Below are positions 24,697 to 64,000 of a DNA stretch of 64,000 bases, in pieces (position 1 is the first letter of the stretch; each line of letters begins with the position of its first letter). Made by a program: the position numbers and the translations under genes. The notes beneath the pieces are model-generated. The model saw nothing but the letters and a program-made list of their open reading frames with translations. It was not told the origin of the DNA and ran no database searches. Location of the stretch: contig OV277861.1 of the NCBI GenBank assembly GCA_922989275.2, forward strand, positions 13,230,540 through 13,294,539, in the 5' to 3' direction. Source of the DNA: Gari tellinella. Taxonomy: Eukaryota; Mollusca; Bivalvia; Cardiida; Psammobiidae.

Positions 24697-24717
24697 AAGG
24701 AAGCGTCAAACAACTAT

Positions 24718-26615: not shown

Positions 26616-26721
26616 GCTGATCAACAAATACACCGGATAGTGAGTGAGTGTGAATGTAAAGCGCTTTTGAACGCACAACTCTTCTCCTGTGTGAAAAGAG
26701 CGCCACATAAATCTGGTATAA

Positions 26722-26770
26722 TAATAATAATAATAATAACAATAATAATACATGTAATAATGATAATAGT
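26722..26770. repeat. TAA microsatellite
   Basis: Run of ATA/ATAA trinucleotide repeats with a few interruptions. Confidence 0.8.
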
Positions 26771-26829
26771 AATTTCTTTCATAACCTTGTACAATCAAAC
26801 GACTCCAACATACAAACAGACGTCATCAT

Positions 26830-27950
26830 CATGAACTTTGTCAAAGCTTTCGATAAAGTATCACATAAACACCTTATCTACAAACTACAGCACTATGGAC
26901 CATGGAATACATGGAAATACTCTTAAATGGATTACTGACTTTCTGACTGACCGGACCCAGACTGTTGTCTTGGAAGGAGAAAACTCTGATAAAATACCCG
27001 TAACATCTGGGGTACCCCAAGGCACAGTCTTGGGTCCGATACTCTTTCTTATTTATATAAACGACCTTCCCAACTATCTAAAACACAATACCCTTAGACT
27101 TTTTGCAGACGACGGGATCATATACAAAGAAATCAGAACACCTAACGATTGTCAACAACTACAGACAGAACTTGATGCTCGGCACGATGGGAACAAGACC
27201 GGCTCATGCACTTTCACTCAGACAAATGCACTGTACTTTCTGTCACGCAAAAACGCAAATCACACAAATTTACTTATACTCTCCATTCACAAGCTCTTGA
27301 AAAAGTTGATCATGCTAAATATTAAATTTAGGCCTCACCTTACAAAACAATCTTAAATGGGACAAACATATAAACAACATTACAAATAAAGCTAACCAAA
27401 CTCTTGGATTTCTAAAACGAAACTTGAAAATAAATTCGGTGAAATCAAATGATCATGCTTATAAAGCTCTCATAAGACCAAAATTGGAATACTCTGCATC
27501 TGTCTCCAGGGACCCACATACAAACTCTAACAAAAACCAATTTGAAAAAGTGCAAAGGCGTGCAGCCAGGTTTGTTTCCAACCGTTAACACGACACTAGC
27601 TCAGTATCACATATGTTTCACAGTCTCAACTGGCCCACTTTAGAATTAAGGAGAACTAGATGTAGATTAGTAATGTTTTATAAAAAGTATCCATAATGTA
27701 GACTTAGCTATCTGCCCACCATATCAACTTCTCCAGGCATCAGATATCATAACCAGACAATGCAACACATACTCTTTCAAACATATCGCAACATCAAAAG
27801 ACACCTACAAATATCCATTCTATCCAAGAACAGTAGCCAAGTGGAACCCTTTGCCTGTCTCTATACAATCAGCAGTCACAGTAGACACATTCAGGACTCT
27901 TGTTCAGGACTGTGACTGTCCTAACACCAATTTTCAGTAGCTAAATCTAT
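26830..27950 (+). pseudogene. Jockey/CR1-like reverse transcriptase fragment
   Basis: Begins in FVKAFDKVSHKHLIYKLQHYG. It continues through the palm motifs TSGVPQGTVLGPILFLIYINDLP and LFADDGIIY (about 27096-27122), then in shifted frames FLKRNLKINS, KALIRPKLEYSASV, FEKVQRRAARFVSNR and YPFYPRTVAKWNPLP. There are several frameshifts and stops; it is 5'-truncated and not functional. Confidence 0.8.
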
Positions 27951-28534: not shown

Positions 28535-28671
28535 ATGTCGTCAAATTGGACAGGTCACACTCATTCTGCTGAGCCTGTTCTGCTCATAGAACCAGGAACA
28601 GACAATAAAGCTCCTGATGGCGGACCCGAGTTGTCGAAATCGCATCCTATATTCGAGAGCATCAAATCAGG
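28535..28671 (+). CDS. Palmitoyltransferase exon 1
   Basis: The ATG at 28535 is preceded in frame by TGA (28529-28531), which supports this start. It encodes 45 residues and two bases of Gly46. The Ser/Glu/Pro-rich start ([17 protein letters not shown]) has no domain. The donor TCAGG/GTAGGT joins in phase to exon 2. An acceptor-like TTATTTTAG ends at 28500, so the 5' untranslated part may begin there. Confidence 0.8.
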
Positions 28672-40600: not shown

Positions 40601-43600
40601 CGGGTAACCCGGCGTCTGATCAGGCTCCAAACTGTTTGCCACCAAGATAAACATGAATTATCAGAATTGTCCAAAAGTTGTATTTTTCTACGTTTTAGTG
40701 ATTTGCGTTTGCGTACGTTTGCATTTAAACGGGAAAGAATAACAGATTCTCCACTGTATATCCTGCCTGATTTGTATACCTTAAGTTGAACCTTGTATAT
40801 TTCCTAAGGACATGATTAGTATAGTGTGGTTGTTCTGTATACTGGGATACTGTGGGAAATCATGTGATTTAATCAAATGTAGCCTTTGTTCAGTCCTCAT
40901 TGAATGGAGAAAAACAAATGAAACACTCCATTACTCCATAGATACACATTTTTGTGCCTTTAATTCATTCCCCCACTGAAGAAAATGGTTCCAATTTAGA
41001 CATTTATGACTAATGAAAACGTATCATAAGAAATTTTTTGTATATACTAACAGATGTTTGCTTAAAGCAGGCTGAAAGTAAAGCAGATTGCACCTAAAGG
41101 CACATTCTGCTTTACTTTCAACCTGCTTTTAAAGGTTGCATATCCTCATTACTAGAAACAGGCTATGGGCTAATGGGTTTAGTCTGTCAAACCTGTGTTA
41201 TGCAACAACTCTGTGAAGTAACATTGAAGTCTTAAAAAAAGCAAGTGAAAGCTTGGAGAAGGACAAACGTTTCTTTTTACTATGATTTCTTTAAATAAAC
41301 ATAGCTTTAATTTTGCTTCTTGACATATTTTCAGTTTAAAGCTTGGTTGCAGCCCTTTGAAGTTTTTTTATTATTATTATATACATGTAGAAGCTAAGCT
41401 GGAAACTAAAAGACTTTAAAGTTTTAACCCTTTCCTCAATAGTCATCAGTTCAGACCAGCTGGATCGAATATAGCATATACATGTAACTGTTTTCTCACA
41501 TAACTTCCCATTTTCAATAGCGACTAACCATTACGAATATCCTTGTCTTGAACATGTTGATCACTTTGATGACGGCACTCAATTCCAAGAATAGACTATT
41601 GCTTAAAATACCATAAATTTGTTGGTTATGTGAGAAAAAGAATCTGTCACTGGTTGATCTTTTAGACAATCTGATCTCAACCTCGTCTTGAATAGAAAAG
41701 TTTCTAAACTTGCCAAGGCTTGCTTAATAACACATCGGCTGAATGGGACGTAAAACATCATTCATTCATTCATTTATTCATTCTTAATAACATTTCAATT
41801 CTAGACTTGGTTGAGATCAGTTTGTCTCAAAGATTGGCTCATGACAGATCCTATAATTATGTTGTACTGTGATAAGGCAGATGGCTGCCTATGGCAAGAT
41901 TAATGTAAAACAGAAAACTCCTACATGTAAGGCAGCTTTCTGCTTGATTTTCATCTTGCTTTTAGCCCATAGCCTGTTTCTAGTATTGAAAATAGGTTGC
42001 CACTTAAAGCAGGTTGAAAGTAAAGCAGAATGAGCCTTAAGGTGCATTCTACTTTACTTTTAACCTGCTTTAAGCTACCATTTTCTAGAATATTGAAAAA
42101 AGTTAATATCATACGTTTTCAAAACTGTATACATGTAAACTGTTTTCCTCAGTCAAGAAATAAATTAAATGTGTAAAAAAGTGTATTTATGGGGTAATGG
42201 GTTAAGCTGCCACTAGAATTTACCACTGTCATTGATTTTTCATTTGATTGCATACCAGTATACCAAGACGGGGTTGCTGCATTCTAAAGCTCTTTAGTGG
42301 ATATGTTAACCTTTAAAGTACAAGAACAGGTTATATACATTATTTGCAAACATGTAGACCCAGTTTTGCTGACTCATGAAGGAGTCCACTGATCAGGTCT
42401 GCAATTTTTGTGAAACTTAAAAATATTCTGTGACCAAACCCCTCAAGAACCAATGTTTACTGGTCATTTATTAGAAAGCAGATTGGTCTATGTAATTTTG
42501 AGGGATTGGTTAATGGGAATATTGTGGCATATTTTGCATGGCTTTTTAAAATGACGGATAAAGATTGGATAATCCGCAAAAGTTCAGTGGCATTTAAGGC
42601 TTGTTCAGGTACCCTTTGTCTGTCCACTAACACCTAACACTAGGTAACTCTTATGGGTTATTACGTTCCCTTGTGAATCATTTTAGTGACTTAAACATGA
42701 AGTGGTATACTTGGAATTCTGGGTAGTTCAATAAATGCTTGTCTAAACTAGCAAACAGTGCATGGGTTAAGGTGTGTTGATATGTCAATATGTATAATTC
42801 AGATGACAGATGTTCATAGCGGCAGTGATAATTTTAGAAAGGAGATGAATAAGTCCTCGGGATGCACATTCTGTTAAACAATGAGTCCTTGAGACAAACA
42901 TTAAGTCCTTGAGGTGTAAAATTAACCCAATATCCTATAACTTATTTCTAGTTTTGAAGACGGGTGACAACTTAAAGCAGGTTTAAAGTAAAGCAGAATG
43001 TGCCTTAAGGCACATTCTGCATTACTTTCAACCTGCTTTAAGCTACTATTTGCTTATGAGTAATAGGTTAATAAAAGCCAGAAAAGCCTTTGGCCCGTGG
43101 GACTCGCAACTTTTTAGATAATGAGCTCCTGGCAAATTAACCCATTAAGCCATACTGACTCATTTTGACTCATTGCGCAATAGCCTCATACTAACTCATT
43201 TTGACGCACTTTAATCAACTACCCTCTATTGAGACAAGCATTGATAATTGTTTATCACTTATGAGTTAATGGGTTAAATGAGTATAGGACTCGGGATGCA
43301 CTGGTAAAATTATCACTGTAGTGGGCAGAGTTATATATGAATATTCAGTGATATTAAGGGTAAGATACTTTAGGAATCATACTGAAACAGGTTTTGCTTC
43401 AGCAGTTTGCTGTAATCATCAGAGTATTGCATTATAACCCATTACCCCATAGCTTGTTTCTAGTTTTGAAGATAGGTGACTACTTAAAACAGGTTGAAAG
43501 TAAAGCAGAATGCACCTTAAGGCACATTCTGCTTTACTTTCAGCCTGTTTTAAGCTACCATCTACTAGGATATAAAAATAAAATTATGCTAAATAGTCAT

Positions 43601-46600
43601 GACTGTGTAATTTTGAACGGTTTTTGTCGGTGGAGGAATAAATTAGAGGAGTAAAAAGGCATATTTATGGGGGAATGGGTTAAAGCTCAACAGTTAACTT
43701 GTGTAACTACAATAACATAATACAAACATTAAACTTAAATTGTTGTGTTCATGAATCCTAATATTAGTATGATTATTTTCTATACCAGGTTGCCCATTTT
43801 GATGAGTGGAAGCAAGGTGATAACCCGCTCAGTCGACTGTGTCATACGTGTCGGACAGTTAAACCTATACGCTCCAAACACTGTAAGATCTGCAACCGCT
43901 GTGTGAAAGTGTTCGATCATCATTGTCCCTACATCTATAACTGTGTCGGTGTTAATAACAGGTAAGGAAGAATTTAACACATTTATCTGTTCATACTGCA
44001 ACACCCTCATATGAGTATTACGTGCTCTTGTATACAGCAAAGTCTGTATTAGCCCATTTTATGCGGGATACACTTTTAGGTGTACCTCTAGGCAAACAGT
44101 TTTGATCTCAGATCAGGCCCCACATTGTGGGGCCTGATCTGAGATCAAAACTGTTTGCAGCTAAGTCAATATTATATCAGAAACTTCTAAAATCTTTAGT
44201 AAATATTTGAGTTATATCCGCTGCAGACGACATTTTAAAATGGCTGCCAAATATTACCCAGCATACAATGGGTTAAGCGACCATTCTATGGAGAAGAGTG
44301 CAATTCTATAAAGACTGGTAGTTGCATAATGAAGGACAAAAGTAATGCAGAAAGCTGTTAACCCATTACCCCATAAAAAGGTTTTTGTAAGCCTTTAACT
44401 TACTCTTCTATCAGAAGAAAATAGTTCCAGTTTATGTTGTTATAAATATGCACCATTAGAAGTTTTTTCTATAACCTAATACATAATAGCTGAAAGCAGG
44501 CTGAAAATAAAGCAGAATGTGCCTCAAGGCACATTCTGCTTTATTTTCAACCGGCTTTAGGTAATCAATAATTTAGGTCTTCAAAACTAGAAGCAGGCTA
44601 TCGGTAAAAGGGTTTTTCTGCATTATTTGTGTCCTTCATTTAGGAGCCAGTTGTCTTGAAGAGTGTCCATTGATCTTTTAATTGGTTGCTTAATAGAGGT
44701 TTTATTACAAGCATTTTTAAAACAAGAACAAAAAAGGAATTTGATCAATAAGCCAAGCCTTGAGGTGAACATTAGATTTTGTGACATTCTTTGAATATTA
44801 GGTGACCTGCAAACCTTGTCGACCTAACTAACAACTTATTTAAATGTGAAAGTATTGGTGTTAGTATCTGAAGACAACCAAAGTAGTGTTTATATCTGAT
44901 TCCTGCACAATAAGTCTCAATATATTTTGTTTTACGTCTCTATTCTCACTTGAAGGTTTAAGTTTCTATAACCTCTTTCTTCCTACAGTTTTAAGTTGTG
45001 TTTTAGGTGTTGGTGCATGAAATTAGAATGTTGCCTTGTTTTTCTTCATTTTGGAGTTTTTTTGTTGTTTGTTTAGACAGATAGCTAAAAAAAATATAAA
45101 GGAGTTAAGATATGAAAATTCTGTTTTAATCTCATATTTGCAGGACTCTAGTAGATATAGCTTGAAAATTCCAATCTATGTAAAATAGTTTGCAATGAAT
45201 TTAGGTCAATATAGTTGTCTGTTTTCGTTATTTACATCTAGTACCTGTCATTTGTGCATTTGCTAAAAGTGGCATATACTATGCCAGTTTGGCACTCTTG
45301 AAATTAGCTGCTTTAAGAAAAGATTCCTATATATAGCTCTTATTCAAATTCAATGCAGGATAGCATTATGAAAACAGCATTTCTTTAAGGAATAGATACA
45401 GGCATGAAAAAGGGTATTTCTTAGAAGGAAAGAGCTATTGTGCCTGTAATTGTTAGAAATGTGTATTTTGTGACAACCTAGCACTCTTGTGTATATGCAA
45501 CCCACCTATACCTGCTACTATATATATACATTTGTATAAATGAAGAAGGAACTCGATGCTGGAAATAAATATCGGAAAAAGACGTTATGAAAAATCAGCC
45601 GCCGCGGCCGGGAATCGAACCACGGGTCTATGGATTGCCGGTCCAGCATGCTAACCACTACACCACAGCGTCATTAACGTCATGAGAAGTCAGCTGGCCG
45701 CTGTGGTGTAGTGGTTAGCATGCTGGACCGGCAATCCAGAGACCCGTGGTTTGATTCCCGGCCGCGGCGGCTGATTTTTCATAACGTCTTTTTCCGATAT
45801 ACATTTGTATATATGTCAAATCTCGGGAAACCAATTTGTAACCTTAGAAAACTCCTCTGTGCTTTGGAGAAAGATGCATGCCATGTGCTAGCTGTTTGGT
45901 GGATGGGTTAAAACTATATTGATGTCTCCCTCTCGTCTTGGCTTGTAAACACCAGGGAGTTGAGTCTGAGATCTTTCTCAAGCATTTGATTGGTCAGATT
46001 TGAGCCTAGGCTCAAATCTGACCAATCAAATGCTTGAGAATGACTTCGGACTCAACTCAAAAGCTTTACCTTGGAGCCTGAACTCCTCAAAGTTTCTTGG
46101 TCTCCATTTAGGTTATATTTATGGAATAATATTATATTGGATGAAACTATTTCTAGGAGTGAGTTAACCAAAGATTTTATATTTTCTGGCAACAGTAAAC
46201 CCTGTGTAGTAACTGCTTATTAGACATTTCTTTCAGATGGTTCTAATGAGAAATCACACCATAGGGTTTAATGAAGACATTAAGATTTATATATTTGAAA
46301 TACATGTATTCACCATATCCGGTTCTAAATTTAGGAAACAAAAAATTGTAATATTTCATGTTTTTTATTTGTACTTTGAAAACAACTCTGTCAACTCCTG
46401 CACATATATGCCATAAATAACTATATGCCATAAATAACTACGCATTGATGGTTTTGAATACAGATTAAAGCTGCATGCAATATGGAAGTAAAGCAGAAAA
46501 CTGGTAGAGGAACTTTCTACATTACCTACTTAGGCTACATATTGCTTTAGCAGTCACTGCCTTAAAACTAATTGGATATAGGTGATTCAAATAATCAGAT

Positions 46601-52600: not shown

Positions 52601-55600
52601 CCGCCCTACTCTCTCTGGTACATCAAAATTAACCCATAGATGGCAGAAACAGATGTTAACAAACAAATTCAATCTCTGTATAATACTCTGTTACTGCACA
52701 ATAAGGTTTAATATCTGTCTATTAACACTGTTTGACTGTCTGAAGATTCATACCTGCTTTAAATCATTAACAGAACCTGCTTGACATCAAGAACTAGGCT
52801 TGCTTGATTCCAATTGCTAAAGTTTTGCTTGCTAACCAGAACAATACCTATGCTAGACAGCAAGAACTGTACCTGCTTGATACCAAGAGCTAAATCTATG
52901 CTTGTCATCAAACACTTTCTCTGTTTTTGGCAGGGTCCAAGATAACAAGGTTCCAACACTTTCTTTATGTCTGCACTAAACCCTGAGAAGTAGCTACTAG
53001 TGGTGGACCGATTATCCCTTAACCCTTTACCTCATAGCCTGTTTCTAGTTTTGAAGACAGGTGACCACTTAAAGCAGGTTGAAAGTAAAGCAGAATGTGC
53101 CTTAAGGCACATTCTGCTTTACTTTCAGCCTGCTTTAAGCTAAAATATGTTAGGTAATATAAAATATTTGTAATGGTAATTGTTCATGAGGGTATAAACT
53201 GGAACTATTTTCTTCAGCGGAGGAATAAATTAAATACGCTAAAAGTCGCTTCTATGGGGGAAAGGGTTAACCAATTACCCCATAGCCTGTTTCTAGTTTT
53301 GAAAAAAAGTGACCACTTAAACAGGTTGAATCTAAATCAGAATGCGCCTAAGGGGCATTCTACTTCAATTTCAACCAGCTTTCAGCTACCGGTCATCTGG
53401 ATCTATTTTCATCAGAAGGGGAATATAAATTAAAAGGTATAAAAATGTGTATTTATAGGGTAATTGGTTAAGGTTGCCCACAGTCAGTTTTTTACGTCCA
53501 AGTCTGCAATAATCAATTGACCTTTTCCGCTTTATGCAATGTCACAAATCTATTTTAGACAAATTATTCAAAGTTATGGAAATATGGGAAATAGAGCTTT
53601 TAGTTCAGTAGAGCAAATGCTCCACTTTCTGTTATATTCTGAAACATCCGGTATTTAAAGGCACATTGAGGCTGAGTGTATGTTGCCACCACTTCTAAAC
53701 AGATTGAAATTTAGAACACATGTTCGAATTCCAGGCGAGTGAAATTAAACAATATCAATAATAAAAATATGTTATCCAAGGAATGCATGGAGTAATGACC
53801 ATAATAAAATGATCAAAATAAAATAATAGTCACATCATAGAGTTTGATGCAAGCATAAAGATTCTAGCCTTTGGAGAAAACCTCTTTATCTGGAGAACTG
53901 TTTTGGTTGTACTATGGTTAGGACGTTTACTGACGTAATACTGTTCTGTTGTCTCGTTGTAGGCATTGGTTTTACGGGTTCGTAGTGAGTGTCCTGGTAA
54001 ACATATACTTGACTGATTACTTTTGCTACTACCTTCTAAATCTGTATGGCTGGGACTGGGCAGTTGTCATAGGCAGTGTAGAGGCTGGAATCTTCTCATT
54101 AGCAGTAACGGGGTTGACATTTATGATGGTAAGGCCAGATGATCCAGTCTGAACATCATCACACACTCTCCATGCCTTGCCTGTCTCGGGGGTTGGAGTC
54201 TCAGATGCTTATATTGTTCTAAACTTTAGAATACATTTCCTAGTTTGATACTTTAACACACTTACCTTTATAACTTAATATGTTAGGATACTGTAAAATC
54301 TGTATGAAGTGGCAATTTCAAAGTCTGTGAATTTACTGTTCCTTACACCAGTAGCTGCATTGTGAAGGTAAAAGTAATTGAGCAGGGAGCTTGCTGCATT
54401 ACTTTTGTCCTGCATTAAGCAAGAATTTGTGTTTTTAGATTTTATCAAATTCTTAACTCAATGGTAGAAATTCTTAACTCAATGGTAGCTTCATACAGGT
54501 TTTACTGTTAATATTCATCATATGACATTTGTAAAAAAAATAAAAAAAATAAAATCTGATATACCAATTACTGACAGTGAAGGCATGTGTGTGTGGGTCG
54601 TGTAACACGCTTCATACAGTGTCACAGAGTCTCTAAAACATACAGAACATGCAGAACAACCGACACGCTGATTCCTGTTATATAAATGTGATGAATACCC
54701 CCTACATGGGTGTTACAATTCTGTTGAAAAAGCAGTTGTTAAAGCAAATTGCTATGGCAGAACTTGAAATTGAGGTCAGTATTTTGAAACAAAAACCAAT
54801 AGCAGAAATTAACTTCCAGGATTAATGAACGGGTTACTGGTTTATTATTTGACAAGGCTCATGGCACTGTATGAGGCTTAACACATAGTTTAAGTTGGGT
54901 TCCATCTTACGTCAGGGTCTCGTACCCAGAGGTAAGGGATACAGAAATAGACATATCAGCTGTTATGAATGTTCTTCCAGCTGGGTTGGTTGATATGGTT
55001 TGTTGCCATGGTGACAGTAGCTTGTTTGCATAAATTAATTTATACGGTAGGTCATTAAGAGGATCTACTTGATAGTCTAATACTCAGAAAATGTACCTAG
55101 GCAGATGGATGCTTATAACCCTTGACTCCATAGTCTGTATTGAAAATCGCCTTCATTCAACTCCTTTCAAGAAAGGATACTGTTTAAGGCAAGATGAAAG
55201 TAAAGAAGGAAGCTTGTTTCAGGAGCTTTCTATTTTTCTTGCATTCTGCTTTACCCTATTACCACATAAATATGTCTTTTTACGCCTTTAATTTATTTCT
55301 CCACTGAGGAAAATAGTTCCAATTTATACCGTTATTAATATGTATGATTTACTATATATTCTAGCAGATTGTAGCTTAAAGCAGGCTGAAAGTAAAGAAG
55401 AATGTGCCTTAAGGCATATTCTGCTTTTCTTTCAACCTGCTTTAAGTGGTCAACTATTTTGCAGATGGTAGCTTAATGCAGGCTGAAAGTAAAGCAGAAT
55501 GTGCCTTAAGGCACATTCTGCTTTTCTTTCAACCTGCTTTAAGTGGTCACCGATTTTCAAAACTAGAAACAGGCTATGGGGTAATGGGTTAAGCTGAAAC

Positions 55601-58600
55601 CTGACGCTAGCACAGAACCTGAAACAGCAAAGCTATACGCCATACCCTGCCAGAGGAACTGTCATATTACAGTGATGTCTATTTCTGTTTCTGTTATGTT
55701 AGTTAGAATTATTTTCAATGTTCACATTAATGTTAGCCATGTTCGGTTATGGTTTGTTTCAGAGTTTCGTTTGTAGGTTTCGCAGGATCAGTGATGGTCA
55801 ACGGGTTCTTATGCATCGGCTTGAGCTTGTACACACTGCGGGTGCTGGATGAGAATTGGAACCCCGTCTACATCTTCTACATGTTCCTCGGGCTCTTCTT
55901 CCAGGGCGTGTCCACATACATTTCGGGCTTTATGGTAAGTTACAGCCTTTGGCATGCAGAAGAATCTCTTTATTACGACCACTACTTGAGCTCAAATTGT
56001 CAGTGTTTAACTCATTACCCCATAGTATGTTTCTAGTTTTGAAAATAGGTGACCACTTAAAGCAGGTTGAATGTTAGTGGTGTAACGAATCATCAATGCA
56101 TTGTGATGTACTTAGACGCCGATGTCTGTATCAGCTTGTAATTTATGAATCTTGCAATATATTGCGATGGCAATACATTCATCAGCCCTGCGATGCATAG
56201 ATACGAGTGTTAAATATCGTGGATCACAATTTACACCTAATATGACACTTGATAACAAACTGTCTAATAAGAATCAAAACTGTTTGCCTTGTAACGAGAG
56301 AGAAAAATGGATTTGAATGTTTTGCAGACATCCATTTTAAAGTAACTGACATGGCGGTATAATGATATTCTACCTCTTCCAACATCATACTTTTTAGCTC
56401 GCCTGTATGAAGTACATGACGAGCTATTGCAATACCCCCGGTGTAGTCATCGTCGGCGTCGTCGTGAACGGCGTAAACAATTTTAAGAAAATGTCTGTAA
56501 CTTCTATGTCCCTTGAGGTATTGCTTTCATAGTTGGTATGTGTGTGTATATGGACAAGACCTTTCCATGCACAGAAAAATTTGGACCCCTTGACCTTGAA
56601 CTTAGGGCCCGCGTTTAGGTTTCGAAATCTGTGTTTAGGTTTGGAAAAATGTCTATAACTTCTACGTCCCTTGAGGTATTGCTTTCATAGTTGGTATATG
56701 TGTGTATATGGACAAGACCTTTCCATACACAGAAAAATTTGGACCCCTGTGACCTTGAACTTAGGGCCCGCGTTTAGGTTTCCAAATCTGTGTTTAGGTT
56801 TTGAAAAATGCCTATAACTTCTATGTCCCTTGTGGTACTGCTTTCATAGTTGGTATGTGTGTGTATATGGACAAGACCTTTCCATGCACAGAAAAATTTG
56901 GACACCTCGAACTTAAGGCCCGCGTTTAGGTTTCGAAATCTGTGTTTAAGTTTCGAAAAATGTCTATAACTTCTATGTCCCTTGAGGTATTGCTTTCATA
57001 GTTGGTAAATGTGTGTATATGGACAAGACCTTTCCATGCACAGAAAAATTTGGACCCCTGTGACCTTGAACTTAGGGCCCGCGTTTAGGTTTCCAAATCT
57101 GCGTTTAGGTTTTGAAAAATGCCTATAACTTCTATGTCCCTTGAGGTACTGCTTTCATAGTTGGTATGTGTGTGTATATGGACAAGACCTTTCCATGCAC
57201 AGAAAAATTTGGACACCTTGAACTTAAGGCCCGCGTTTAGGTTTCGAAATCTGTGTTTAAGTTTCGAAAAATGTCTATAACTTCTATGTCCCTTGAGGTA
57301 TTGCTTTCATAGTTGGTATATGTGTGTATATGGACCTTTCCATGCACAGAAAATTTTTGACCCCTGTGACCTTCACCTTGATCTAAGGGCGTTTAGGTTT
57401 CGAAATCTGTGTTTATGTTTCGAAAAATGCCTATAACTTCTATGTCCCTTGAGGTATTGCTTTCATAGTTGGTATGTGTGTGTATATGGACAAGACTTTT
57501 CCATGCACAGAGAAATTTGGACACCTCTGACCTTGACCTTGATCTAAGGGCCCGTGTTTAGGTTTCGAAATCTGTGTTTAGGTTTCGAAAAATGCCTATA
57601 ACTTCTATGTCCCTTGAGGTATTGCTTTCATAGTTGGTATATGTGTGTATATGGACCTTTCCATGCACAGAAAATTTTTGATCCCTGTGACCTTCACCTT
57701 GATCTAAGGGCGTTTAGGTTTCGAAATCTGTGTTTATGTTTCGAAAAATGCCTATAACTTCTATGTCCCTTGAGGTATTGCTTTCATAGTTGGTATGTGT
57801 GTGTATATGGACAAGACTTTTCCATGCACAGAGAAATTTGGACACCTCTGACCTTGACCTTGATCTAAGGGCCCGTGTTTAGGTTTCGAAATCTGTGTTT
57901 AGGTTTCGAAAAATGCCTATAACTTCTATGTCCCTTGAGGTACTGCTTTCATAGTTGGTATGTGTGTGTATATGGACAATACCTTTCCATGCACGGAAAA
58001 ATTTGGACCCCTGTGACCTTGACCTTGAACTTAAGGCCCACGTTTAGGTTTCGAAATCTGTGTTTAGGTTTCGAAAAATGCCTTTAACTTCTATGTCCCT
58101 TGAGGTATTGCTTTCATAGTTGGTATATGTGTGTATATGGACCTTTCCATGCACAGAAAAATGTTGACCCCTGTGACCTTGACCTTGATCTTAGGGCCCG
58201 CGTTTAGGTTTCCAAATCTGTGTTTAGGTTTCGAAAAATGCCTATAACTTCTATGTCCCTTGAGGTATTGCTTTCATAGTTGGTATGTGTGTGTATATGG
58301 ACAAGACTTTTCCATGCAAAGAAAAATTTGGACACCTCTGACCTTGACCTTGCTCTTAGGGCCCGTGTTTAGGTTTCGAAATCTGTGTTTAGGTTTGGAA
58401 AATGCCTATAACTTCTATGTCCCTTGAGGGTTGCTTTCATAGTTGGTATGTGTGTGTATATGGACAAGACCTTTCCATGCACAGAAAAATTTGGACCCCT
58501 GTGACCTTGACCTTGAACTTAGATCCAGGGTTAAGGTTTCGAAATCTGTGTTTAGGTTTCAAAAAATGCTTATTTCCTATGTCCCCTGAGGTGTAACTTC

Positions 58601-61496
58601 ATACGTGTATTAAATTTTGATTTTCATGTGTATATGGACAAGACCTTTCCATGCAGCAGGCCTCGATCTAACCGGTAGCCCGGTAGCCTGAGGCTACTTG
58701 AAATTGCCAGGGGCTACTTGAAATTACTGGTTGGGTAGTCCGATAGGCTACCTATTTTTCTGACTTGAAATGTCCCTTTTTAATGTTAAAATACGATTTA
58801 ATGATAAAAACTACGATCTGTTGGTACTATTCTGAAAGCTAGGGAAATACGCATACACCGATTTGTTTCCGGAAGTTATATGTTTGATAAAACAAATAAA
58901 CCGCTCCAAATAAACCGCACATGGATAATGATTAGCGAATTAGACCGCGGGATTCCGAATGTATAAGATAAAATTTATCCGCGTCTCGGTAGAGAATAAA
59001 ACGTGAGCGAGATTGCACCCATGAATTGACAATTGCAGACAGGTAATATAATTTCTTTTTCACATTTTTTGAGAAGGTAACAGGCCCGTGATCTTTCCGC
59101 AGATCCGCGGATTGTATTGCCGCCGAAACCATTTCTGAGATTCGTCCAGATTCGTTGAGAAAATCTGACGACTATAAGGGGGGTGAGGTCTGAAAGTCGG
59201 TCGCGTCCACGGACGTGTTTTAGTCTGACCCGGAAATCGTTGTACATTAACATTAACGGTAACGGAAAAGTCCGAGTGTTCCACATCAATTTAACTGGTT
59301 ACCGCATTTGAAAACTCGGAAACCAGTCTTCGCGACAACACCGCTTTTCGAGACCAAAATATTTTTGTGTTTTGATGTTTGAACGATGTTTATAGATTGT
59401 CAATAATATGACAGCTTCCTAAAATAACAAGGTTAGCAAATTTAAAAGGGGTTTGATTATGATATTGTTTTTTTTCGTTAAGACCAACGGCAAGCGAGTC
59501 GAGAAGTCGGTACCATCGTAACGCCCTCGGGTGAAAACGACCCCGGATCAAAACGGCCCACCTATATCTTTTATTACAAATAGCCTAATTGAAAGTAAAA
59601 ATACACGAATGTCTGAAATGTATTCAACATTGAATAACCATGGTAGTGGCGAGATCAATCTACATGATCTAAACAATGCAAAATTTTGGAGAAGACCCCA
59701 ACCCCCAGGCAAAATAATCAGTCTGTTGATTTTGGTCAGCAATAGGAAGAACTTTTCATGGGTTTCATAAAAATATATAGATCTAGTTAGAACTAATTTA
59801 TCAAGAACTCATGTATAATTAATGACACAGACTTGCACAGAGGTGAATTTGTTATGTTTTTCGAAACCTTTATATCGAAAAGTTGAGGGGCTACCAGGGC
59901 TTGTTTTGGTCAAAATATCTGGTGATATTCGGTAGTTTTCCCCCCTCTGAAAAGTATGTTTGTTCCCCCAAATTATGAAGAAAAAAAAACCTCGTCTGAA
60001 TTTTCGTCCTCCGAGTAGGCGCCGTAATTTAAACTATGCGGCCCGTCATACAGTTTATAAATTTTATATGGACAAGTTACCAAAAAAAGACTGGCAAATT
60101 CCTTTGGGACAGGGAGAGGTTTAAAGGCTGATCTATGAATATCCAGGCTAATTTAGATAAAAAATATTCAGAAAAAATTACCTAAAATAATCCCAGAAAT
60201 GCCTCAGAAGCCACCTCCTGCAATGTAGATTTTAAAATTTTCCAGGGGAGGCCCCCCGTACCCCCACCAATGAGAGGGGGATACCCCCTCTCATACTCTC
60301 CCCCCTCGTGCCTTCGGCACTCGGTGAGCGCCACAGGCGCTCAATATTTTCCCCTTGCCCTGGCTACCAATATTTGCTGGGGGCTACCAGATTTTCTAAG
60401 CAGGTAGCCCCATGGGCTACTGACAGAAATTGATTAAGGACAAGGCCTGTGCAGGCTAAAAGGGTGACCTTGAGTGTGCTTTTAAGTTTCTAAATGTGAA
60501 GGGGCCTCCGTGGCCTAGTGGTATAGTCACTGTGACTTAAATCACTAAGCTCCTCACCGCTGTGAGTTCGAATCCCAGTAGGGTCGTTCGGATTTTTCAT
60601 GTGGGGAAGCCTTCCAGCTGGCTTGCGGAAGGACGGTGGTTCTACACAGTTGCCGATTTGTGCCTAAAACAGTGCATAAATGACTTCTTGGGTCTTCCTC
60701 CACCTGTAATTAGCTGGACGTCGCGATATGACTGAAATACTGTTGAAAGCGACGTAACATCAAAACAAATCAAATCAATCTAAATGTGCCGATGGCTAGC
60801 TTTGTTGTCTCTCTGACAACTCTTGTTACATTACGTATAGTTGTTAATGTATACATATTTGATTTAAAACAATCTGAGTGGCTGCAAACTAACAACTGAT
60901 GTGTTCTTATTTAAAAGTCTGTATCTTGATACGTATTGCATCACGACTTAGATATTGCAATAAACCTTTTATTCTCACAGGCAATACGTATCATGATAAG
61001 TATCATTGTTAAAATGAAATATCAGGATACAAATCGTGAAGGAAATAACTGCCAATGCACAGCCCTATTGAATGTACATTACCCTATAGCCTTTAAAAGA
61101 GACGGTGACCAATGCAGGTTGAAAGTAAAGCAAAATGTACCTAAAAATGAAATTGCTCGTTTCCAATAAACTGAAAACTCTGTATAACACAAACCATTCA
61201 GGAGTCCTCTGGGCTGTGTCTACACTGTTTGCCAAGGATGAGTATAGATCTCGCCCATCACTATAAGCGGCTAATATCATACTCTTGCTTTATTTCCACA
61301 GTTCTACCTGGCCGTGGTGAACCTGACCACCAACGAGACCATCAACTACAAGCGCTACGACCACCTACATAACAAGGAGGGCAAGCTAGACAATCCGTTC
61401 AACAGAGGCTGGAAGATCAACCTACTAGAGTTTCTGTTAATTATCCCCCTCCCAGAGGAGTTTCTAGAGCCTGATGACATGAATGAAACCTTGTAA
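28535..61496 (+). CDS. Ankyrin-repeat DHHC palmitoyltransferase (whole gene)
   Basis: Joining 28535-28671, 31826-32232, 32575-32708, 33183-33325, 34618-34714, 36137-36289, 43789-43961, one of 53963-54128 or 55763-55934, and 61302-61496 gives 534 or 536 residues with every junction in phase. Residues 1-46 look unstructured, and about 55-260 are five ankyrin repeats. TM1 and TM2 lie at about 285-340, followed by DPG. The zinc-binding cysteine-rich domain and DHHC (400-403) come next, then TM3-TM4 from the alternative exon and TTNE (479-482). Family knowledge: such proteins attach palmitate to cysteines of membrane-associated proteins, and in HIP14/AKR1 types the ankyrin domain recruits substrates. 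The membrane domain here seems to have four spans rather than the six of HIP14. The exact orthologue is uncertain. Confidence 0.92.
28764..28925. mobile_element. MITE family E, partial
   Basis: Interior and central hairpin (CATCTCGAAGAGACGATTTT) of family E; both ends are lost. In intron 1, 92 bp after exon 1. Confidence 0.6.
29045..29265 (+). mobile_element. tRNA-derived SINE
   Basis: A-box-like TAGCTCGGTGATATAGCG and B-box-like GGGTTCAATCCTCGGCC are spaced as in tRNA. They are followed by a body (AAACCAAAGACTTAAAAATT, then CTTAGTGCTCAGGATCTCG) of a type I recognise from mollusc genomes. Confidence 0.7.
29960..30355. mobile_element. AT-rich palindromic element with ATCGATTAT motifs
   Basis: Many direct and inverted copies of TCGATCAATCATCG and AATCGATTAT; ends near TAGGGTTTCATAATCGG and CGATCATCGTTTAACCACTA. 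Probably a non-autonomous hAT-type element; the duplication was not resolved. Confidence 0.5.
30400..31360. other. Intron 1 stretch, no gene seen
   Basis: No exon with splice sites, RNA gene or delimited repeat found; a minus-strand open frame at 30920-31177 has no recognisable family. Confidence 0.35.
31376..31480. mobile_element. MITE family E, half
   Basis: Carries AGAGACAATTCTAATGAGTA and AAATAAGTGAGAAAATATTG from the right half of family E. Confidence 0.55.
31491..31751. mobile_element. TA-flanked MITE just before exon 2
   Basis: Terminal inverted repeats CAGTGGTAAATACTCTATTC and GAATAGCGTATTTATCACTG extend inward to CCTACCCATTTACGCG, about 36 bp, with TA outside. The interior is rich in AAACGCGT-type motifs. 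It ends 74 bp before the exon 2 acceptor. Confidence 0.8.
31826..32232 (+). CDS. Palmitoyltransferase exon 2 (ankyrin repeats)
   Basis: The acceptor ATTTTACAG/AATG and donor TTTAAAG/GTTTGT give 407 bp. It encodes residues 47-181 plus part of Gly182, with consecutive ankyrin units marked by [37 protein letters not shown] and [10 protein letters not shown]. Confidence 0.93.
32255..32487 (-). mobile_element. MITE family A
   Basis: Reverse orientation; one arm of the central hairpin is deleted (AAAGCAGCCTTAAGGCACAT). In intron 2. Confidence 0.75.
32575..32708 (+). CDS. Palmitoyltransferase exon 3
   Basis: The acceptor TGTTGCAG/GC and donor GAACAG/GTATGA give 134 bp, residues 183-226. It continues the ankyrin domain with [15 protein letters not shown]. 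Confidence 0.93.
32809..32935 (-). mobile_element. MITE family A, left half
   Basis: TTAACCCTCTCCCCCATAAA to the start of the arm; the central hairpin and the rest are missing. Confidence 0.6.
33183..33325 (+). CDS. Palmitoyltransferase exon 4
   Basis: The acceptor TTTCCAG/GATG and donor TTTCTG/GTTAGT give 143 bp, residues 227-273 plus two bases of Trp274. It holds the last ankyrin unit ([16 protein letters not shown]) and a basic linker toward the membrane. Confidence 0.92.
33505..33759 (+). mobile_element. MITE family B, full length
   Basis: AAACCTTTGAACCCTAGCCC to GGGATAAAAGAGTTTAA with a perfect GATCAGAGGGCTCC hairpin; the flanking TTAA is slightly eroded. Confidence 0.8.
33895..34146 (-). 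mobile_element. MITE family A, full length
   Basis: Reverse orientation with right end GGGGTAATGGGTTAA and a nearly intact central hairpin. Confidence 0.82.
34296..34540 (-). mobile_element. MITE family A
   Basis: Reverse orientation, intact central hairpin, right end TATGGGTTAATG; 78 bp before exon 5. Confidence 0.78.
34618..34714 (+). CDS. Palmitoyltransferase exon 5 (TM1)
   Basis: The acceptor CTATTTTTAG/GTC and donor TTTAAG/GTAAGT give 97 bp, completing Trp274 and encoding residues 275-306. [20 protein letters not shown] is the first membrane span. Confidence 0.92.
34939..35188 (+). mobile_element. MITE family A, full length
   Basis: ATTACCCCATTTCC to GGTAAAGGGTTAA, with a central hairpin slightly extended by an extra CACA. 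Confidence 0.8.
35619..35866 (+). mobile_element. MITE family A, joined to B
   Basis: TTAA at both ends; its right TTAA (35863-35866) is also the left TTAA of the following family B copy. Confidence 0.88.
35863..36112 (+). mobile_element. MITE family B, 24 bp before exon 6
   Basis: TTAACCCTTTGAACCC to GGGAGGAAAGAGTT with a perfect hairpin; it shares its left TTAA with family A and ends next to the exon 6 acceptor tract. Confidence 0.85.
36137..36289 (+). CDS. Palmitoyltransferase exon 6 (TM2, DPG)
   Basis: The acceptor TTATTTCCAG/TGC and donor AAACAG/GTAGAT give 153 bp, residues 307-357. The second span is [17 protein letters not shown], followed by STTDPGYLP, the DPG motif that follows TM2 in DHHC enzymes. 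Confidence 0.93.
36452..36651. mobile_element. MITE family G, diverged
   Basis: Carries GTCAAACTTACCCATGTTTT and the palindrome TTAAAACATGGCATAGCCA, ending TATGACTGTA. Confidence 0.55.
36685..36868. mobile_element. MITE family E
   Basis: CAGGGCCCCAGATAAG to TTATCTGGAGCTCTG with a perfect central hairpin AGAATCGTCTCAAAGAGACG. Confidence 0.78.
36948..37088. mobile_element. MITE family E, diverged
   Basis: CAGGGCCACAGATAAGGG at the left; the right side reads CCCTCTTATCTCAAGCCTG. The hairpin is degraded. Confidence 0.55.
37090..37228. mobile_element. MITE family F
   Basis: Perfect inner hairpin TCAGATTTGAGCATCTGCTC and outer CTTATAAA / TTTATAAG arms. Confidence 0.65.
37448..37670 (+). mobile_element. 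MITE family B, core shortened
   Basis: TTAA at both ends; the central hairpin is reduced to GTGAAGACCCTGATCAGGGTC. Confidence 0.82.
37864..38111 (+). mobile_element. MITE family B, old copy
   Basis: TTAACCCTTTTGAACCCTAG at the left; many differences in the core and right end. Confidence 0.6.
38182..39512. mobile_element. MITE with CAGGGGCCCG ends, split by a tandem-repeat element
   Basis: Ends CAGGGGCCCGTTCCATAAAA and TTCTATGAAACAGGCCCCTG, about 24 bp of inverted repeat. GTCTTGTGACATC and GATGTCACAAGAC extend the stem further in. The insert at 38249-39377 splits it. Confidence 0.75.
38249..39377 (-). mobile_element. Tandem-repeat element, copy 3 (reverse)
   Basis: Begins with the hairpin AGCTCACCTGGCACGAAGTG CC and ends GAGCGATTTAGGGCC, so it has the same termini as 14356-15496 in reverse. 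The internal array is unrelated: units of about 153-169 bp marked by TGGCCGCCAGTGGGTGGGGC at 38591, 38760, 38928 and 39081. Confidence 0.75.
39520..39955. other. Intron 6 stretch, nothing assigned
   Basis: No exon, RNA or delimited repeat recognised. Confidence 0.35.
39960..40210 (-). mobile_element. MITE family B, full length
   Basis: TTAA at both ends with CTCTTTCCTCCCTAAAAC and GACTAGGGTTCAAAGGG; perfect GATCAGAGGGCTCC hairpin. A family A right end follows directly (40235-40259). Confidence 0.87.
40511..40756. mobile_element. MITE family D copy 2, TA-flanked
   Basis: CAGTGGAGAATCTGTTATTC and its complement at the ends, TA outside, core GATCAGACGCCGGGTAACC. Very close to copies 1 and 3, so recently active. 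Confidence 0.88.
40921..41180 (-). mobile_element. MITE family A
   Basis: CCATTACTCCATAGATAC to GGCTATGGGCTAATGGG; hairpin slightly diverged. Confidence 0.75.
41180..41960. other. Intron 6 stretch, mostly unassigned
   Basis: No exon seen. A family I-like AGATTAATGTAAAACAGAAA piece occurs at about 41895-41955. Confidence 0.35.
41964..42205 (+). mobile_element. MITE family A
   Basis: CCCATAGCCTGTTTCTAG to GGGGTAATGGGTTAA; left TTAA eroded to TTTAG. Confidence 0.8.
42823..43318. mobile_element. Composite element L copy 1
   Basis: Outer inverted repeat CAGTGATAATTTTA, perfect at both ends; flanks TAGCGG and TAGTGG fit a 6-bp duplication with one change. Inside are short units (GAGTCCTTGAG), a family A core (about 42922-43072) and an extra TTAA element (43137-43277) that is missing from copy 2. 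Confidence 0.82.
43137..43277. mobile_element. TTAA element M, nested, with empty site in copy 2 of L
   Basis: TTAACCCATTAAGCC to GAGTTAATGGGTTAA, 137 bp plus duplicated TTAA. The matching place in L copy 2 (about 51394) has a single TTAA, so this is a clean insertion. Confidence 0.85.
43435..43683 (+). mobile_element. MITE family A, full length
   Basis: AACCCATTACCCCATAGC to GGGAATGGGTTAA with a nearly perfect central hairpin; 105 bp before exon 7. Confidence 0.85.
43789..43961 (+). CDS. Palmitoyltransferase exon 7 (DHHC catalytic core)
   Basis: The acceptor CTATACCAG/GTT and donor AATAACAG/GTAAGG give 173 bp, residues 358-414 plus two bases of Arg415. All zinc ligands of the cysteine-rich domain are present: C375, C378, H388, C389, C392, C395, H402 and C409. 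Catalytic C403 is in DHHC (400-403). The following [11 protein letters not shown] differs from the common PWVxNCVG form at the Trp. The donor phase leaves AG, to be completed by either alternative exon. Confidence 0.95.
44050..44277. mobile_element. MITE family C
   Basis: TTAGCCCATTTTATGC to CCCAGCATACAATGGGTTAA; long perfect hairpin AAACAGTTTTGATCTCAGAT with CAGGCCCCACA. Intron 7. Confidence 0.75.
44325..44655. mobile_element. MITE family I split by family A
   Basis: GAAGGACAAAAGTAATGCAG on the left and TTTCTGCATTATTTGTGTCC on the right are complementary halves of family I; a family A copy (44358 to about 44613) lies between. Confidence 0.7.
44358..44613 (-). mobile_element. MITE family A nested in I
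   Basis: TTAACCCATTACCCCATAAA at the left, intact hairpin with AAAATAAAGCAGAATGTGCC, right end TATCGGTAAAAGGG. Confidence 0.78.
44660..45500. other. Intron 7 stretch, nothing assigned
   Basis: AT-rich sequence without recognisable exon, RNA gene or repeat boundary. Confidence 0.35.
45541..45796. mobile_element. Inverted pair of tRNA-like SINE units
   Basis: A tRNA-like sequence (GTGGTGTAGTGGTTAGCATG, stem CTGGA/TCCAG around CCGGCAA, B-box GTTTGATTCCCGG) is present at 45695-45770 on plus. It recurs at 45597-45672 on minus, with outer arms ATCGGAAAAAGACGTTATG extending the palindrome. TATACATTTGTATA flanks both sides (about 45526 and 45798), compatible with a target duplication. Confidence 0.75.
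45950..46081. mobile_element. MITE family F
   Basis: Perfect 46-bp inner stem on AAGCATTTGATTGGTCAGAT; ends in CTTGGAGCCTG; left end eroded. Confidence 0.7.
46195..46325. mobile_element. MITE family E, diverged
   Basis: Carries CACACCATAGGGTTTAATGA and AATACATGTATTCACCATATC from family E. Confidence 0.5.
46812..47063 (-). mobile_element. MITE family A, full length
   Basis: TTAACCCTTTCCCACATAG to GGGGTAAAGGGTTAA; central hairpin with GCGCCTTAAGGCGC loop. Confidence 0.85.
47069..47200. mobile_element. MITE family F, diverged
   Basis: CAGGCCCCATGCTGAG with inner stem CTTTTGATTGGTCCGATTTA and its imperfect complement. Confidence 0.55.
47543..47794 (-). mobile_element. MITE family A, full length
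   Basis: TTAA at both ends; hairpin variant with ATACACCTTAAGGTGTAT at the tip. Confidence 0.86.
47897..48089. mobile_element. MITE family E with 6-bp duplication CTTATG
   Basis: CAGGGCTCCAGATAAGGGGA to CTTATCTAGAGCCCTG; CTTATG at 47891-47896 and 48090-48095. The best-preserved family E copy. Confidence 0.87.
48667..48819. mobile_element. MITE family F, full length
   Basis: CAGGCTCCAAGGTTATA to TATAACCTTGAACCCTG with inner stem TCAGATTTGAGCCTAGGC. Confidence 0.75.
49048..49240 (+). mobile_element. MITE family A, hairpin deletion
   Basis: A left and right ends present, but the centre is reduced to AAAGTAAATCACATTCTGC. Confidence 0.72.
49581..49828 (-). mobile_element. MITE family A, diverged
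   Basis: AACCCAAAATATATTTATTCC to the right end GGTCGGGGTTAA; hairpin worn. Confidence 0.6.
49984..50490 (-). mobile_element. MITE family A, split by another A
   Basis: TTAGCCCTTTCCCCAATAG to GGTGTAAAGGGTTAA; a second A copy (50122-50374) sits at its internal TTAA (GTAGCTTAA/AGCAGA). Confidence 0.85.
50122..50374 (+). mobile_element. MITE family A nested in family A
   Basis: TTAACCGGTTACCCCATAGCC to GGGGTAATGGGTTAA. Opposite orientation to its host; TTAA duplicated at the junctions. Confidence 0.88.
50469..50996. repeat. Minisatellite: 8 perfect 66-bp units
   Basis: Units start at 50469, 50535, 50601, 50667, 50733, 50799, 50865 and 50931; I see no differences among them. Each starts with the last 22 bp of the adjacent family A element (ATGCTATGGTGTAAAGGGTT) and adds 44 bp of neighbouring DNA. 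Because 66 is divisible by 3, the minus strand stays open as a 22-residue repeat. This is almost certainly not a protein: no splice or coding context. Confidence 0.95.
51079..51439. mobile_element. Composite element L copy 2, 6-bp duplication CTGATA
   Basis: CAGTGATAATTTTA and its exact complement at the ends; CTGATA at 51073-51078 and 51440-51445. Contains GAGTCCTTGAGACAAACATT units and a family A core (about 51179-51330), co-linear with L copy 1. Confidence 0.88.
51684..51943 (+). mobile_element. MITE family A
   Basis: TTAACCCATTACCCCATATCC at the left; right end TTGGTTAAAGGG; hairpin tip altered. Confidence 0.75.
52192..52243. mobile_element. MITE family C fragment
   Basis: Ends GGCTAGCATGCAAAGAGTTAA; only the right end remains. 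Confidence 0.5.
52405..52550 (+). mobile_element. tRNA-derived SINE, plus strand
   Basis: A-box-like GTGGTCCAGTGGTAATGC, B-box-like GAGTTGGATCCCC, then GTCCTTCGGATGAGACTTTT and AGCTTTACACTGGGCATCTG. Same family as 19775-19925. Confidence 0.7.
53019..53270 (+). mobile_element. MITE family A, upstream of exon 8a
   Basis: TTAACCCTTTACCTCATAGCC to GGGGGAAAGGGTTAA with a perfect AAAGCAGAATGTGCCTTAAG hairpin. Its right TTAA is shared with the next copy. Confidence 0.88.
53267..53471 (+). mobile_element. MITE family A, tandem second copy
   Basis: TTAACCAATTACCCCATAGCC to GGGTAATTGGTTAA; hairpin diverged and part of the right side deleted. Ends about 490 bp before exon 8a. Confidence 0.8.
53963..54128 (+). 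CDS. Palmitoyltransferase exon 8a (TM3-TM4, alternative)
   Basis: The acceptor CTCGTTGTAG/GCAT and donor TTTATGATG/GTAAGG give 166 bp. The first base completes Arg415 and 55 codons follow, giving two hydrophobic spans: [13 protein letters not shown]… and …[18 protein letters not shown], split by a short NLYGWDW loop. The codon phases in and out equal those of exon 8b. The N-R-H-W-F-Y-G-F start is the more ordinary form after a DHHC domain. Probably mutually exclusive with 55763-55934, since using both causes a stop. Confidence 0.9.
54350..54422. mobile_element. MITE family I
   Basis: AAGGTAAAAGTAATTGAGCA and GCATTACTTTTGTCCTGC arms; short form. Confidence 0.45.
54425..55090. other. Intron between exons 8a and 8b, unassigned part
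   Basis: No further exon seen. A search by eye for an in-between coding segment that would restore frame if both 8a and 8b were used found none. Confidence 0.4.
55251..55592 (-). mobile_element. MITE family A, double hairpin, between 8a and 8b
   Basis: Reverse-oriented A with a partial internal duplication: two full palindromes at about 55377-55446 and 55476-55545. Right end GGGGTAATGGGTTAA. Opposite orientation to the copies upstream of 8a and downstream of 8b. Confidence 0.85.
55763..55934 (+). CDS. Palmitoyltransferase exon 8b (TM3-TM4, alternative)
   Basis: The acceptor GGTTTGTTTCAG/AGTT and donor GGCTTTATG/GTAAGT give 172 bp. The first base completes Arg415 and 57 codons follow: [20 protein letters not shown], then a loop VLDENWNP, then [19 protein letters not shown]. 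It aligns by eye with exon 8a through F-x-G-F-x-x-S-V-x-V-N and ends, like 8a, in a Met codon followed by GTAAG. Frame rules allow either 8a or 8b, never both or neither. Confidence 0.9.
56008..56074 (+). mobile_element. MITE family A, cut by hAT insertion
   Basis: TTAACTCATTACCCCATAG to AAAGCAGGTTGAATGT; the rest is lost or displaced by the element starting at 56075. Confidence 0.7.
58657..60449. mobile_element. 1.8-kb transposon with CAGGCCT ends
   Basis: Inverted ends CAGGCCT and AGGCCTG, flanked by TGCAG on both sides. Repeated GGCTAC / GTAGCC motifs lie in the subterminal 100-150 bp of each side (pointing inward and outward). No transposase frame. Superfamily not determined. Confidence 0.65.
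60499..60778 (+). mobile_element. SINE with 10-bp target duplication
   Basis: TCTAAATGTG at 60489-60498 and 60779-60788. Head GGCCTCCGTGGCCTAGTGGT and GAGTTCGAATCCCAGTAGGG, body, and tail AAATCAAATCAA. Close relative of the minus copy at 22504-22782. Confidence 0.9.
61077..61150 (+). mobile_element. MITE family A fragment
   Basis: CATTACCCTATAGCC to AAAGTAAAGCAAAATGTACC; may be the separated continuation of the copy cut at 56074 or an independent one. Confidence 0.5.
61302..61496 (+). CDS. Palmitoyltransferase exon 9 (TTxE and C-terminus)
   Basis: The acceptor TATTTCCACAG/TTC gives phase 0 entry; 64 codons and stop TAA at 61494-61496. It holds the end of TM4 (FYLAVVNL), the TTxE motif TTNE (479-482), then [15 protein letters not shown], the region that forms the PaCCT-like tail of DHHC enzymes, and an acidic end. 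The GC content is clearly higher than the surrounding introns. No strong poly(A) signal is obvious just after the stop. Confidence 0.93.
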   Translation, partial: FYLAVVNLTTNETINYKRYDHLHNKEGKLDNPFNRGWKINLLEFLLIIPLPEEFLEPDDMNETL

Positions 61497-63941: not shown

Positions 63942-64000
63942 TAACAGGTAAATAGAAACATCATATTCATTTATGCTGTCGAATACATGTGGCAGCTTAA

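What the first reader, a model, noticed from the sequence alone, without database searches (positions are those of the whole stretch)
53963..55934. Frame-locked mutually exclusive exons swap the TM3-TM4 half of a DHHC palmitoyltransferase
Exons 53963-54128 (166 bp) and 55763-55934 (172 bp) each take in one base to finish Arg415, and each ends in phase 0 with ATG/GTAAG. They encode similar but clearly different pairs of membrane spans (shared pattern F-x-G-F-x-x-S-V-x-V-N). Reading 8a then 8b hits TGA inside 8b at GCTGGATGA. Skipping both hits TGA in exon 9 after six codons. Other AG acceptors in the first 30 bases of 8b do not rescue the frame. Only one-of-two gives a full protein (534 or 536 residues), with an unchanged ankyrin domain and DHHC centre. 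Since TM3-TM4 help form the acyl-chain cavity in DHHC enzymes (known from structures of the family), a swap could change lipid chain preference or partner use. That last step is inference. I know of no described case for this gene class.
Basis: partly seen in the sequence, partly recalled or inferred. Interest (0 to 1): 0.92.

Follow-up and report, generated by a model that had tools for sequence, protein, structure and literature searches.

The report
Splice-swapped enzyme ends with dual-frame exon
In clams, a gene for an enzyme that attaches fatty acids to proteins can swap its last two membrane spans for an ancient alternative pair, and the same choice appears to decide in which of two reading frames the gene's final exon is read, which may change the enzyme's lipid pocket and tail.

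Summary
The two exons are real and at the stated places. They are homologous alternatives (8a, 8b) for TM3-TM4 of a Patsas-type ankyrin-DHHC acyltransferase. The pair is old: 8b-type exons form one supported group across bivalves, gastropods, an annelid and a flatworm. Mya arenaria already has database isoforms X1 (8b) and X2 (8a), identical over 397 residues. In relatives 8a goes with another last exon, which I found 698 bp beyond the window; exon 61302 (9b) goes with 8b. In Mya and Ruditapes, 9b is followed by a tail that matches this same last exon in another frame. Inferred modules: 7-8a-10 (frame A, 534 aa) and 7-8b-9b-10 (frame B, 572 aa). Own against Mya, 25 of 27 degenerate frame-A third sites are identical; 0 of 50,000 random synonymous codings come as close. 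At a position aligned to a DHHC20 pocket-ceiling residue, bivalve 8b has Tyr/Phe (6 of 6) and bivalve 8a Gly (7 of 7), so a lipid-length switch is plausible but untested. No RNA reads were available; isoform use rests on conservation and database models.

The parts
28535..43961 (+). Constant part: coding exons 1-7 (28535-28671, 31826-32232, 32575-32708, 33183-33325, 34618-34714, 36137-36289, 43789-43961): ankyrin repeats, TM1-TM2, DHHC domain
   Evidence: Spliced by hand with AG/GT borders and matching phases, one open frame; Ank and DHHC domains over Pfam cut-offs
53963..54128 (+). Alternative exon 8a (166 bp, 55 further codons): TM3-TM4, module A. Its inferred partner, exon 10, lies OUTSIDE the window: L016:838-1032 = G000:C6:13295237-13295431, beginning 698 bp past window base 64000 on the same strand
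   Evidence: 46-75% identical to Mya, Dreissena and Mercenaria; exon 10:
55763..55934 (+). Alternative exon 8b (172 bp, 57 further codons): TM3-TM4, module B
   Evidence: 69% identical to Mya; groups with 17 other 8b-type segments
61302..61492 (+). Exon 9b (191 bp), partner of 8b in bivalves, with TTNE motif; donor TT|GTAATG, non-consensus; if not spliced, TAA at 61494-61496 ends the protein after NETL. Spliced, it continues into exon 10 (outside the window) in frame B (36 aa, ends TTEV), where 8a reads exon 10 in frame A (64 aa, ends NIKIV)
   Evidence: 68% identical to Mya X1 and Ruditapes X2

Best explanation
This is a Patsas-type ankyrin-repeat DHHC S-acyltransferase gene with two alternative 3' modules. 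Module A joins exon 7 to 8a and then to exon 10 in frame A (534 aa). Module B joins exon 7 to 8b, 9b and exon 10 one base later, frame B (572 aa), or ends at a stop that overlaps the 9b donor (536 aa). 8a plus 8b, or skipping 8 into 9b, breaks the frame, so one TM3-TM4 pair reaches a full protein. Exon 10 is thus dual-coding, its frame set by the upstream choice. The 8a/8b split is ancient in spiralians; 9b looks like a bivalve addition; frame B is seen in this species, Mya and Ruditapes. Inferred effect: the swap reshapes the acyl pocket (aromatic for Gly at one ceiling position in bivalve 8b) and frame B adds a C-terminal helix for partner or location control. Shown: sequence, frames, conservation. 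Inferred: splicing in this animal, its regulation, and function.
For: Clean splice sites and phases. Mya X1/X2 share 397/397 residues and then use 8b-9b-frame B or 8a-frame A. Mixed gene models in Mya (P0006) and two Elysia species carry 8a-like before 8b-like pieces in one protein. 8b-type segments form one group, 96/92 with 57 rows and 100/94 in a stricter set of 51. Frame B: 26/36 identical to Mya X1, 29/36 to Ruditapes X2; random synonymous coding of Mya's frame A gives mean 12.4, maximum 24 in 100,000; 25 of 27 degenerate third bases identical; 6 third-base differences against 20.8 +/- 2.7 expected, 0 of 50,000 as low. Both Mya forms give confident two-helix exon-8 models.
Against: No transcript reads for this or any species were seen. 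Database isoforms are mostly predictions. The 9b donor GTAATG is non-consensus. If 70% of codons at shared residues were simply inherited unchanged, frame-B identity of 26/36 would arise in 5% of draws, and at 90% in 44%; no Mya DNA elsewhere in the gene was available to calibrate this. Frame B was found in only 2 entries among 215 candidates, and Pecten and Mytilus 8b proteins end without it. Entries are representatives of 90% clusters, so an 8a-9b form could hide inside one.
Confidence: 0.78

Rival explanations
1. One reading: a simple mutually exclusive pair, both spliced to the shared exon 61302, which ends the gene.
For: 8a-61302 is open in frame. In gastropods an 8b-type exon is followed by the conserved last exon in Lottia, Haliotis, Lymnaea and one Biomphalaria entry, so sharing of a last exon does occur in the family.
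Against: 6 of 6 bivalve 8a proteins and 5 of 5 complete bivalve 8b proteins have different last exons; the matching exon exists 698 bp past the window.
Confidence: 0.1
2. Conservation of exon 10 bases reflects an RNA element (splicing enhancer, structure) and not a frame-B protein.
For: Conserved third bases alone cannot tell the two apart; frame B has 10 of 36 residues changed against Mya.
Against: Frame B is open over all 36 codons here and in the Mya and Ruditapes tails, while the third frame has several stops in the same stretch; random coding keeps frame B open in 1.9%.
Confidence: 0.15
3. The swap changes partner binding, location or stability and not lipid choice.
For: Tyr181-equivalent is Asn in both own forms; module B also changes the cytosolic end and adds a predicted helix; 8b rows outside bivalves mostly keep Gly at the L213 position (7 of 11 rows of gastropods, annelid, flatworm and one unnamed).
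Against: Four of five named ceiling residues of DHHC20 fall in the swapped exon and one differs Gly to aromatic between all bivalve 8a and 8b rows.
Confidence: 0.5
4. One of the two exons is a relic or never used.
For: No reads were seen; 8b differs much between mollusc classes.
Against: Both are open with good splice sites and have relatives in several classes and phyla; Mya has both as isoforms of one gene.
Confidence: 0.04

Closest known systems
Patsas (Drosophila ankyrin DHHC enzyme, called the fly ortholog of HIP14L in PMC12795455; passages) and database relatives named 'probable protein S-acyltransferase 23'
   Same: Ankyrin repeats, DHHC core, mostly about 525-540 residues; insect Patsas proteins are among the hits
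   Different: The insect rows I aligned (Aricia, Drosophila willistoni) have the 55-residue exon-8 type; no 8b-type insect row was noticed in the listing
Mutually exclusive tandem duplicated exons (PMC9741552, passages)
   Same: Homologous neighbouring exons, one used, mostly ancient, many in membrane transport proteins
   Different: Here the choice also decides the next exons and the reading frame of the last one
Dual-coding isoforms by non-triplet splicing (PMC13247117, passages)
   Same: One exon read in two frames by splice choice, over 60 nt recoded
   Different: In that C. elegans survey mutually exclusive exons were all frame-preserving; here a swap module sets the frame, and one frame carries the enzyme's own conserved C-terminal core
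HIP14/ZDHHC17 (PDB 3eu9, 5w7i ankyrin domain)
   Same: Ankyrin domain plus DHHC
   Different: Models here show four long membrane-type helices; HIP14 is recalled to have six

Membership tests
DHHC S-acyltransferase (PF01529) | DHHC cysteine-rich domain over the family cut-off | tested here: met
   77.5 bits (8a form) and 90.7 bits (8b form) against cut-off 28.7
DHHC S-acyltransferase (PF01529) | TTxE motif after TM4 | tested here: inconclusive
   TTNE in 9b; TVNE in exon 10 frame A, so met for module B, second Thr lost in module A
DHHC S-acyltransferase (PF01529) | Acyltransferase activity | not testable with these tools
   Needs protein
Patsas-type ankyrin DHHC | Ankyrin repeats plus DHHC, with Patsas/S-acyltransferase 23 proteins among the close matches | tested here: met
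   no tree of the whole DHHC family was made
Mutually exclusive tandem duplicated exons | Homologous adjacent exons with same phases | tested here: met
   same order in Mya and Elysia models
Mutually exclusive tandem duplicated exons | One and only one used in mature transcripts | not testable with these tools
   No reads; a full-length frame only with one of two; Mya isoforms agree
Dual-coding exon | Two open overlapping frames, each joined in phase to upstream exons | tested here: met
Dual-coding exon | Both frames under selection | tested here: inconclusive
   Strong against a saturated model, but only one species pair with both frames and no calibration from the rest of the gene
Dual-coding exon | Both proteins made | not testable with these tools
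   Needs proteomics

The most novel reading that the evidence does not exclude
A splice-set enzyme switch: one choice swaps the two helices that hold most of the acyl-pocket ceiling (Gly to Tyr in bivalves), so one gene yields two lipid-length specificities, and the same choice re-reads the last exon in a second, selected frame to add a targeting or partner-binding helix.
Probability: 0.3. Interest if true: 0.88.

Novelty: new variant of a known kind. Interest (0 to 1): 0.72.

Why it matters
My searches brought up no splice-made lipid-specificity switch in a DHHC enzyme (listings), and what sets chain length in this family is an active question. If the reading is right, molluscs have carried a natural TM3-TM4 domain swap in one enzyme for more than 500 million years (divergence time recalled), ready to be assayed. 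The coupled dual-coding exon shows how an exon swap can recruit a second frame in an exon that also carries the enzyme's conserved motifs.

Tried and rejected
8b as part of a second locus: rejected. The 8b query matched the own genome only at 8b and 9b. The 8a query matched 8a closely at one place; its other matches were exon 7, 9b and two more distant DHHC exons on C4 and C7, 39-43% identical. Mixed models in Mya and Elysia carry both in order.

The partner exon of 8a was first sought inside the window and not found, then found downstream.

Whether other species' frame-A peptides permit frame B did not discriminate: many gastropods permit it too, and for some species (for example Octopus, Haliotis, Drosophila) no coding leaves it open. 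The second-look structure comparison listed ankyrin-domain matches only, so it says nothing about the DHHC part. No RNA-pairing rule for exclusion was worked out; strong hairpins lie before 8b and before exon 10, but the same motif is seen repeatedly through the DNA I read. AATAAA or ATTAAA was not found in about 1 kb after the 9b stop nor after the exon 10 stop; this speaks against neither model but is no support.

The molluscan 8a rows are not one group against the rest (2 changes; one group in 30% of bootstrap trees), so which type is older is not settled by the tree. L213/S217 were placed by ungapped counting from the NxTxxE motif, Y181/V185 from the DHHC end; phmmer puts a one-residue gap in TM3 against DHHC20, so the TM3 positions are less sure. 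The 52 relatives of the exon-8 tree were picked by hand from 163 returned proteins; P0006, P0034, P0047 and most arthropod rows, among others, were left out. One search dropped six further rows (three Macrostomum, Watersipora, Acropora, Branchiostoma).
Full report
What is there. The gene is an ankyrin-DHHC acyltransferase on the + strand. Both joined, or both skipped into 61302, give early stops. Because 166 and 172 are both 3n+1, this lock is automatic once the exon is duplicated.

Relatives. Searches with the C-terminal half of the 8b form (566 proteins, best 120 listed) and of the 8a form (527, best 120 listed) returned animal proteins, and lower down plant and other eukaryote ones, many with source names. 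The best are Mya LOC128228063 isoform X1 (79%) and Ruditapes isoform X2 (78%) for the 8b form, and Mercenaria isoform X2 (76%), Tegillarca (72%) and Dreissena isoform X2 (71%) for the 8a form. Mya X1 and X2 are 397/397 identical through DHHC and 43/123 after it; two Biomphalaria entries are 386/386 and 55/116, so each pair very likely comes from one gene. The Nucella and Mytilus pairs are only 70% and 64% alike in the constant part, so they are more likely paralogs. Elysia crispata and E. chlorotica models contain an 8a-like and then an 8b-like segment in one protein, and a partial Mya model carries a piece of 8a before 8b: same locus, same order as here.

Age. Exon-8 segments of 52 hand-picked relatives, three Elysia/Plakobranchus pieces and the two own exons were aligned. 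The 18 rows with 56-58 residues (6 bivalve, 9 gastropod, the annelid Owenia, one Macrostomum, one unnamed) fall on one side of a branch, 96/92. Without the five gappy columns and without six long or doubtful rows, 17 of 17 do so at 100/94. Length class and residues agree. The split predates the mollusc-annelid separation unless Owenia and Macrostomum are misplaced; Macrostomum is a long branch. The tree does not settle which type is older; outgroup rows have the 55-residue length.

The 3' end. Six of six bivalve 8a proteins (Mya X2, Mercenaria X2, Dreissena X2, Tegillarca, Solemya, Sinanodonta) end in a conserved exon unlike 61302; five of five complete bivalve 8b proteins (Mya X1, Ruditapes X2, Pecten X1, two Mytilus) end in a 61302-like exon. 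The 61302-like exons form one group, 94/87, just under the tool's own mark. In gastropods an 8b-type exon can be followed by the conserved last exon (Lottia, Haliotis, Lymnaea, one Biomphalaria), while others have divergent ends. The other last exon was not in the window but lies at L016:838-1032, 698 bp beyond it, behind a pyrimidine-rich stretch and CAG. The extra tails of Mya X1 and Ruditapes X2 match the same bases one frame later. Splicing 61302 at TT|GTAATG (61492/61493) gives a 572-residue protein that ends like theirs. Unspliced, the stop TAA (61494-61496) lies inside the donor (536 residues). That donor is non-consensus.

Is frame B selected? The second base of each frame-B codon is the third base of a frame-A codon, so frame B should decay if only frame A mattered. 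Mya's two peptides can come from one DNA (384 possible strings), while 0 of 2,000 shuffled tails can. At frame-A residues shared by Mya and this species, 25 of 27 degenerate third bases are identical. Differences by frame-A codon position are 6, 3 and 6 of 36 (one Mya codon is ambiguous at its first base); random synonymous coding gives 20.8 +/- 2.7 at the third position, never 6 or fewer in 50,000. Frame-B identity is 26/36 with Mya and 29/36 with Ruditapes; random coding gives 12.4, maximum 24 in 100,000, and stays open in 1.9%. If half of the codons at shared residues were inherited unchanged, 26/36 would arise in 0.3% of draws; if 70%, in 5%; if 90%, in 44%. So the case rests on the two species being far apart. 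That is likely, as own 8a and Mya 8a are only 46% identical, but no Mya DNA elsewhere in the gene was available to calibrate it. A dedicated search found the frame-B tail in only those two entries among 215 candidates.

Structure and function. AlphaFold2 models of Mya X1 and X2 (mean pLDDT 83.7 and 83.8) make exon 8 two long helices after the DHHC domain in both forms, with two long helices before it, and the frame-B tail a helix 530-558 at low to middling confidence (blocks of 53 to 75). In DHHC20 the end of the acyl pocket is closed by S29, Y181, V185 and L213 (PMC9006032, passages), with S217 also named (PMC9105814, passages); by my register all but S29 fall in exon 8. Y181 aligns to Asn in both own forms. 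The L213 position is Gly in 7 of 7 bivalve 8a rows (own included), 9 of 10 gastropod/cephalopod-type 8a rows and 16 of 17 outgroup rows, and Tyr or Phe in 6 of 6 bivalve 8b rows (own included); gastropod/annelid/flatworm 8b rows, with one unnamed, have Gly in 7 of 11. A bulkier ceiling should favour shorter chains, by analogy with S29F in DHHC20. This is inference. A second asymmetry: frame A of exon 10 has TVNE in own, Mya, Mercenaria, Dreissena and Sinanodonta, where 9b keeps TTNE in 6 of 6.

Novelty. Mutually exclusive tandem exons and dual-coding exons are both known kinds (PMC9741552 and PMC13247117, passages). In the C. elegans survey mutually exclusive exons were all frame-preserving. 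A swap module that sets the frame of a shared last exon in an acyltransferase did not turn up in my searches, which cover open-licence papers only and of which I saw listings, with passages of five papers in all. Database isoforms for Mya and Ruditapes show that the pieces are already predicted.

Limits. No transcript reads; no DNA of relatives; the pairing of 8a with exon 10 is read from cluster representatives; whether the own genome holds another exon 10 did not complete.

Noticed in passing
window 181-2169 and about 24219-27937: Long open stretches that look like reverse-transcriptase-type retroelement proteins (impression from the listing, not tested).
   Followed up: no
window 56488-58592 and 50469-51000: Tandem arrays inside the gene's introns: period 321 x 6.6 copies (91% matches) between 8b and 9b, and period 66 x 8.1 copies (100% matches) before 8a.
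   Followed up: no
window 55364-55557 and L016:680-770: Near-perfect palindromes about 200 bp before the 8b acceptor (two copies) and about 60 bp before the exon 10 acceptor fold far better than shuffles (z -6.1, -7.8, -13.3). The motif recurs in the window; they could influence splice choice or be ordinary mobile repeats.
   Followed up: partly
exon 10 frame A, L016:838-1032: The second Thr of TTxE is Val here and in four other bivalves, Ala in Tegillarca, Thr in Solemya. It may be a cost of keeping Ser in frame B, but Sinanodonta and Dreissena have it too and their frame B is unknown.
   Followed up: partly
P0022 and P0028 (Nucella), P0004 and P0036 (Mytilus): Nucella has separate 8a-type and 8b-type genes, 70% alike in the constant part: perhaps a gene duplication that split the two exon forms between copies. 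Mytilus has two 8b-type genes.
   Followed up: partly
P0013 and P0025 (Biomphalaria): Two entries with an identical constant part (386/386) carry two different 8b-type exons and different ends, so some snails may have three or more versions.
   Followed up: partly
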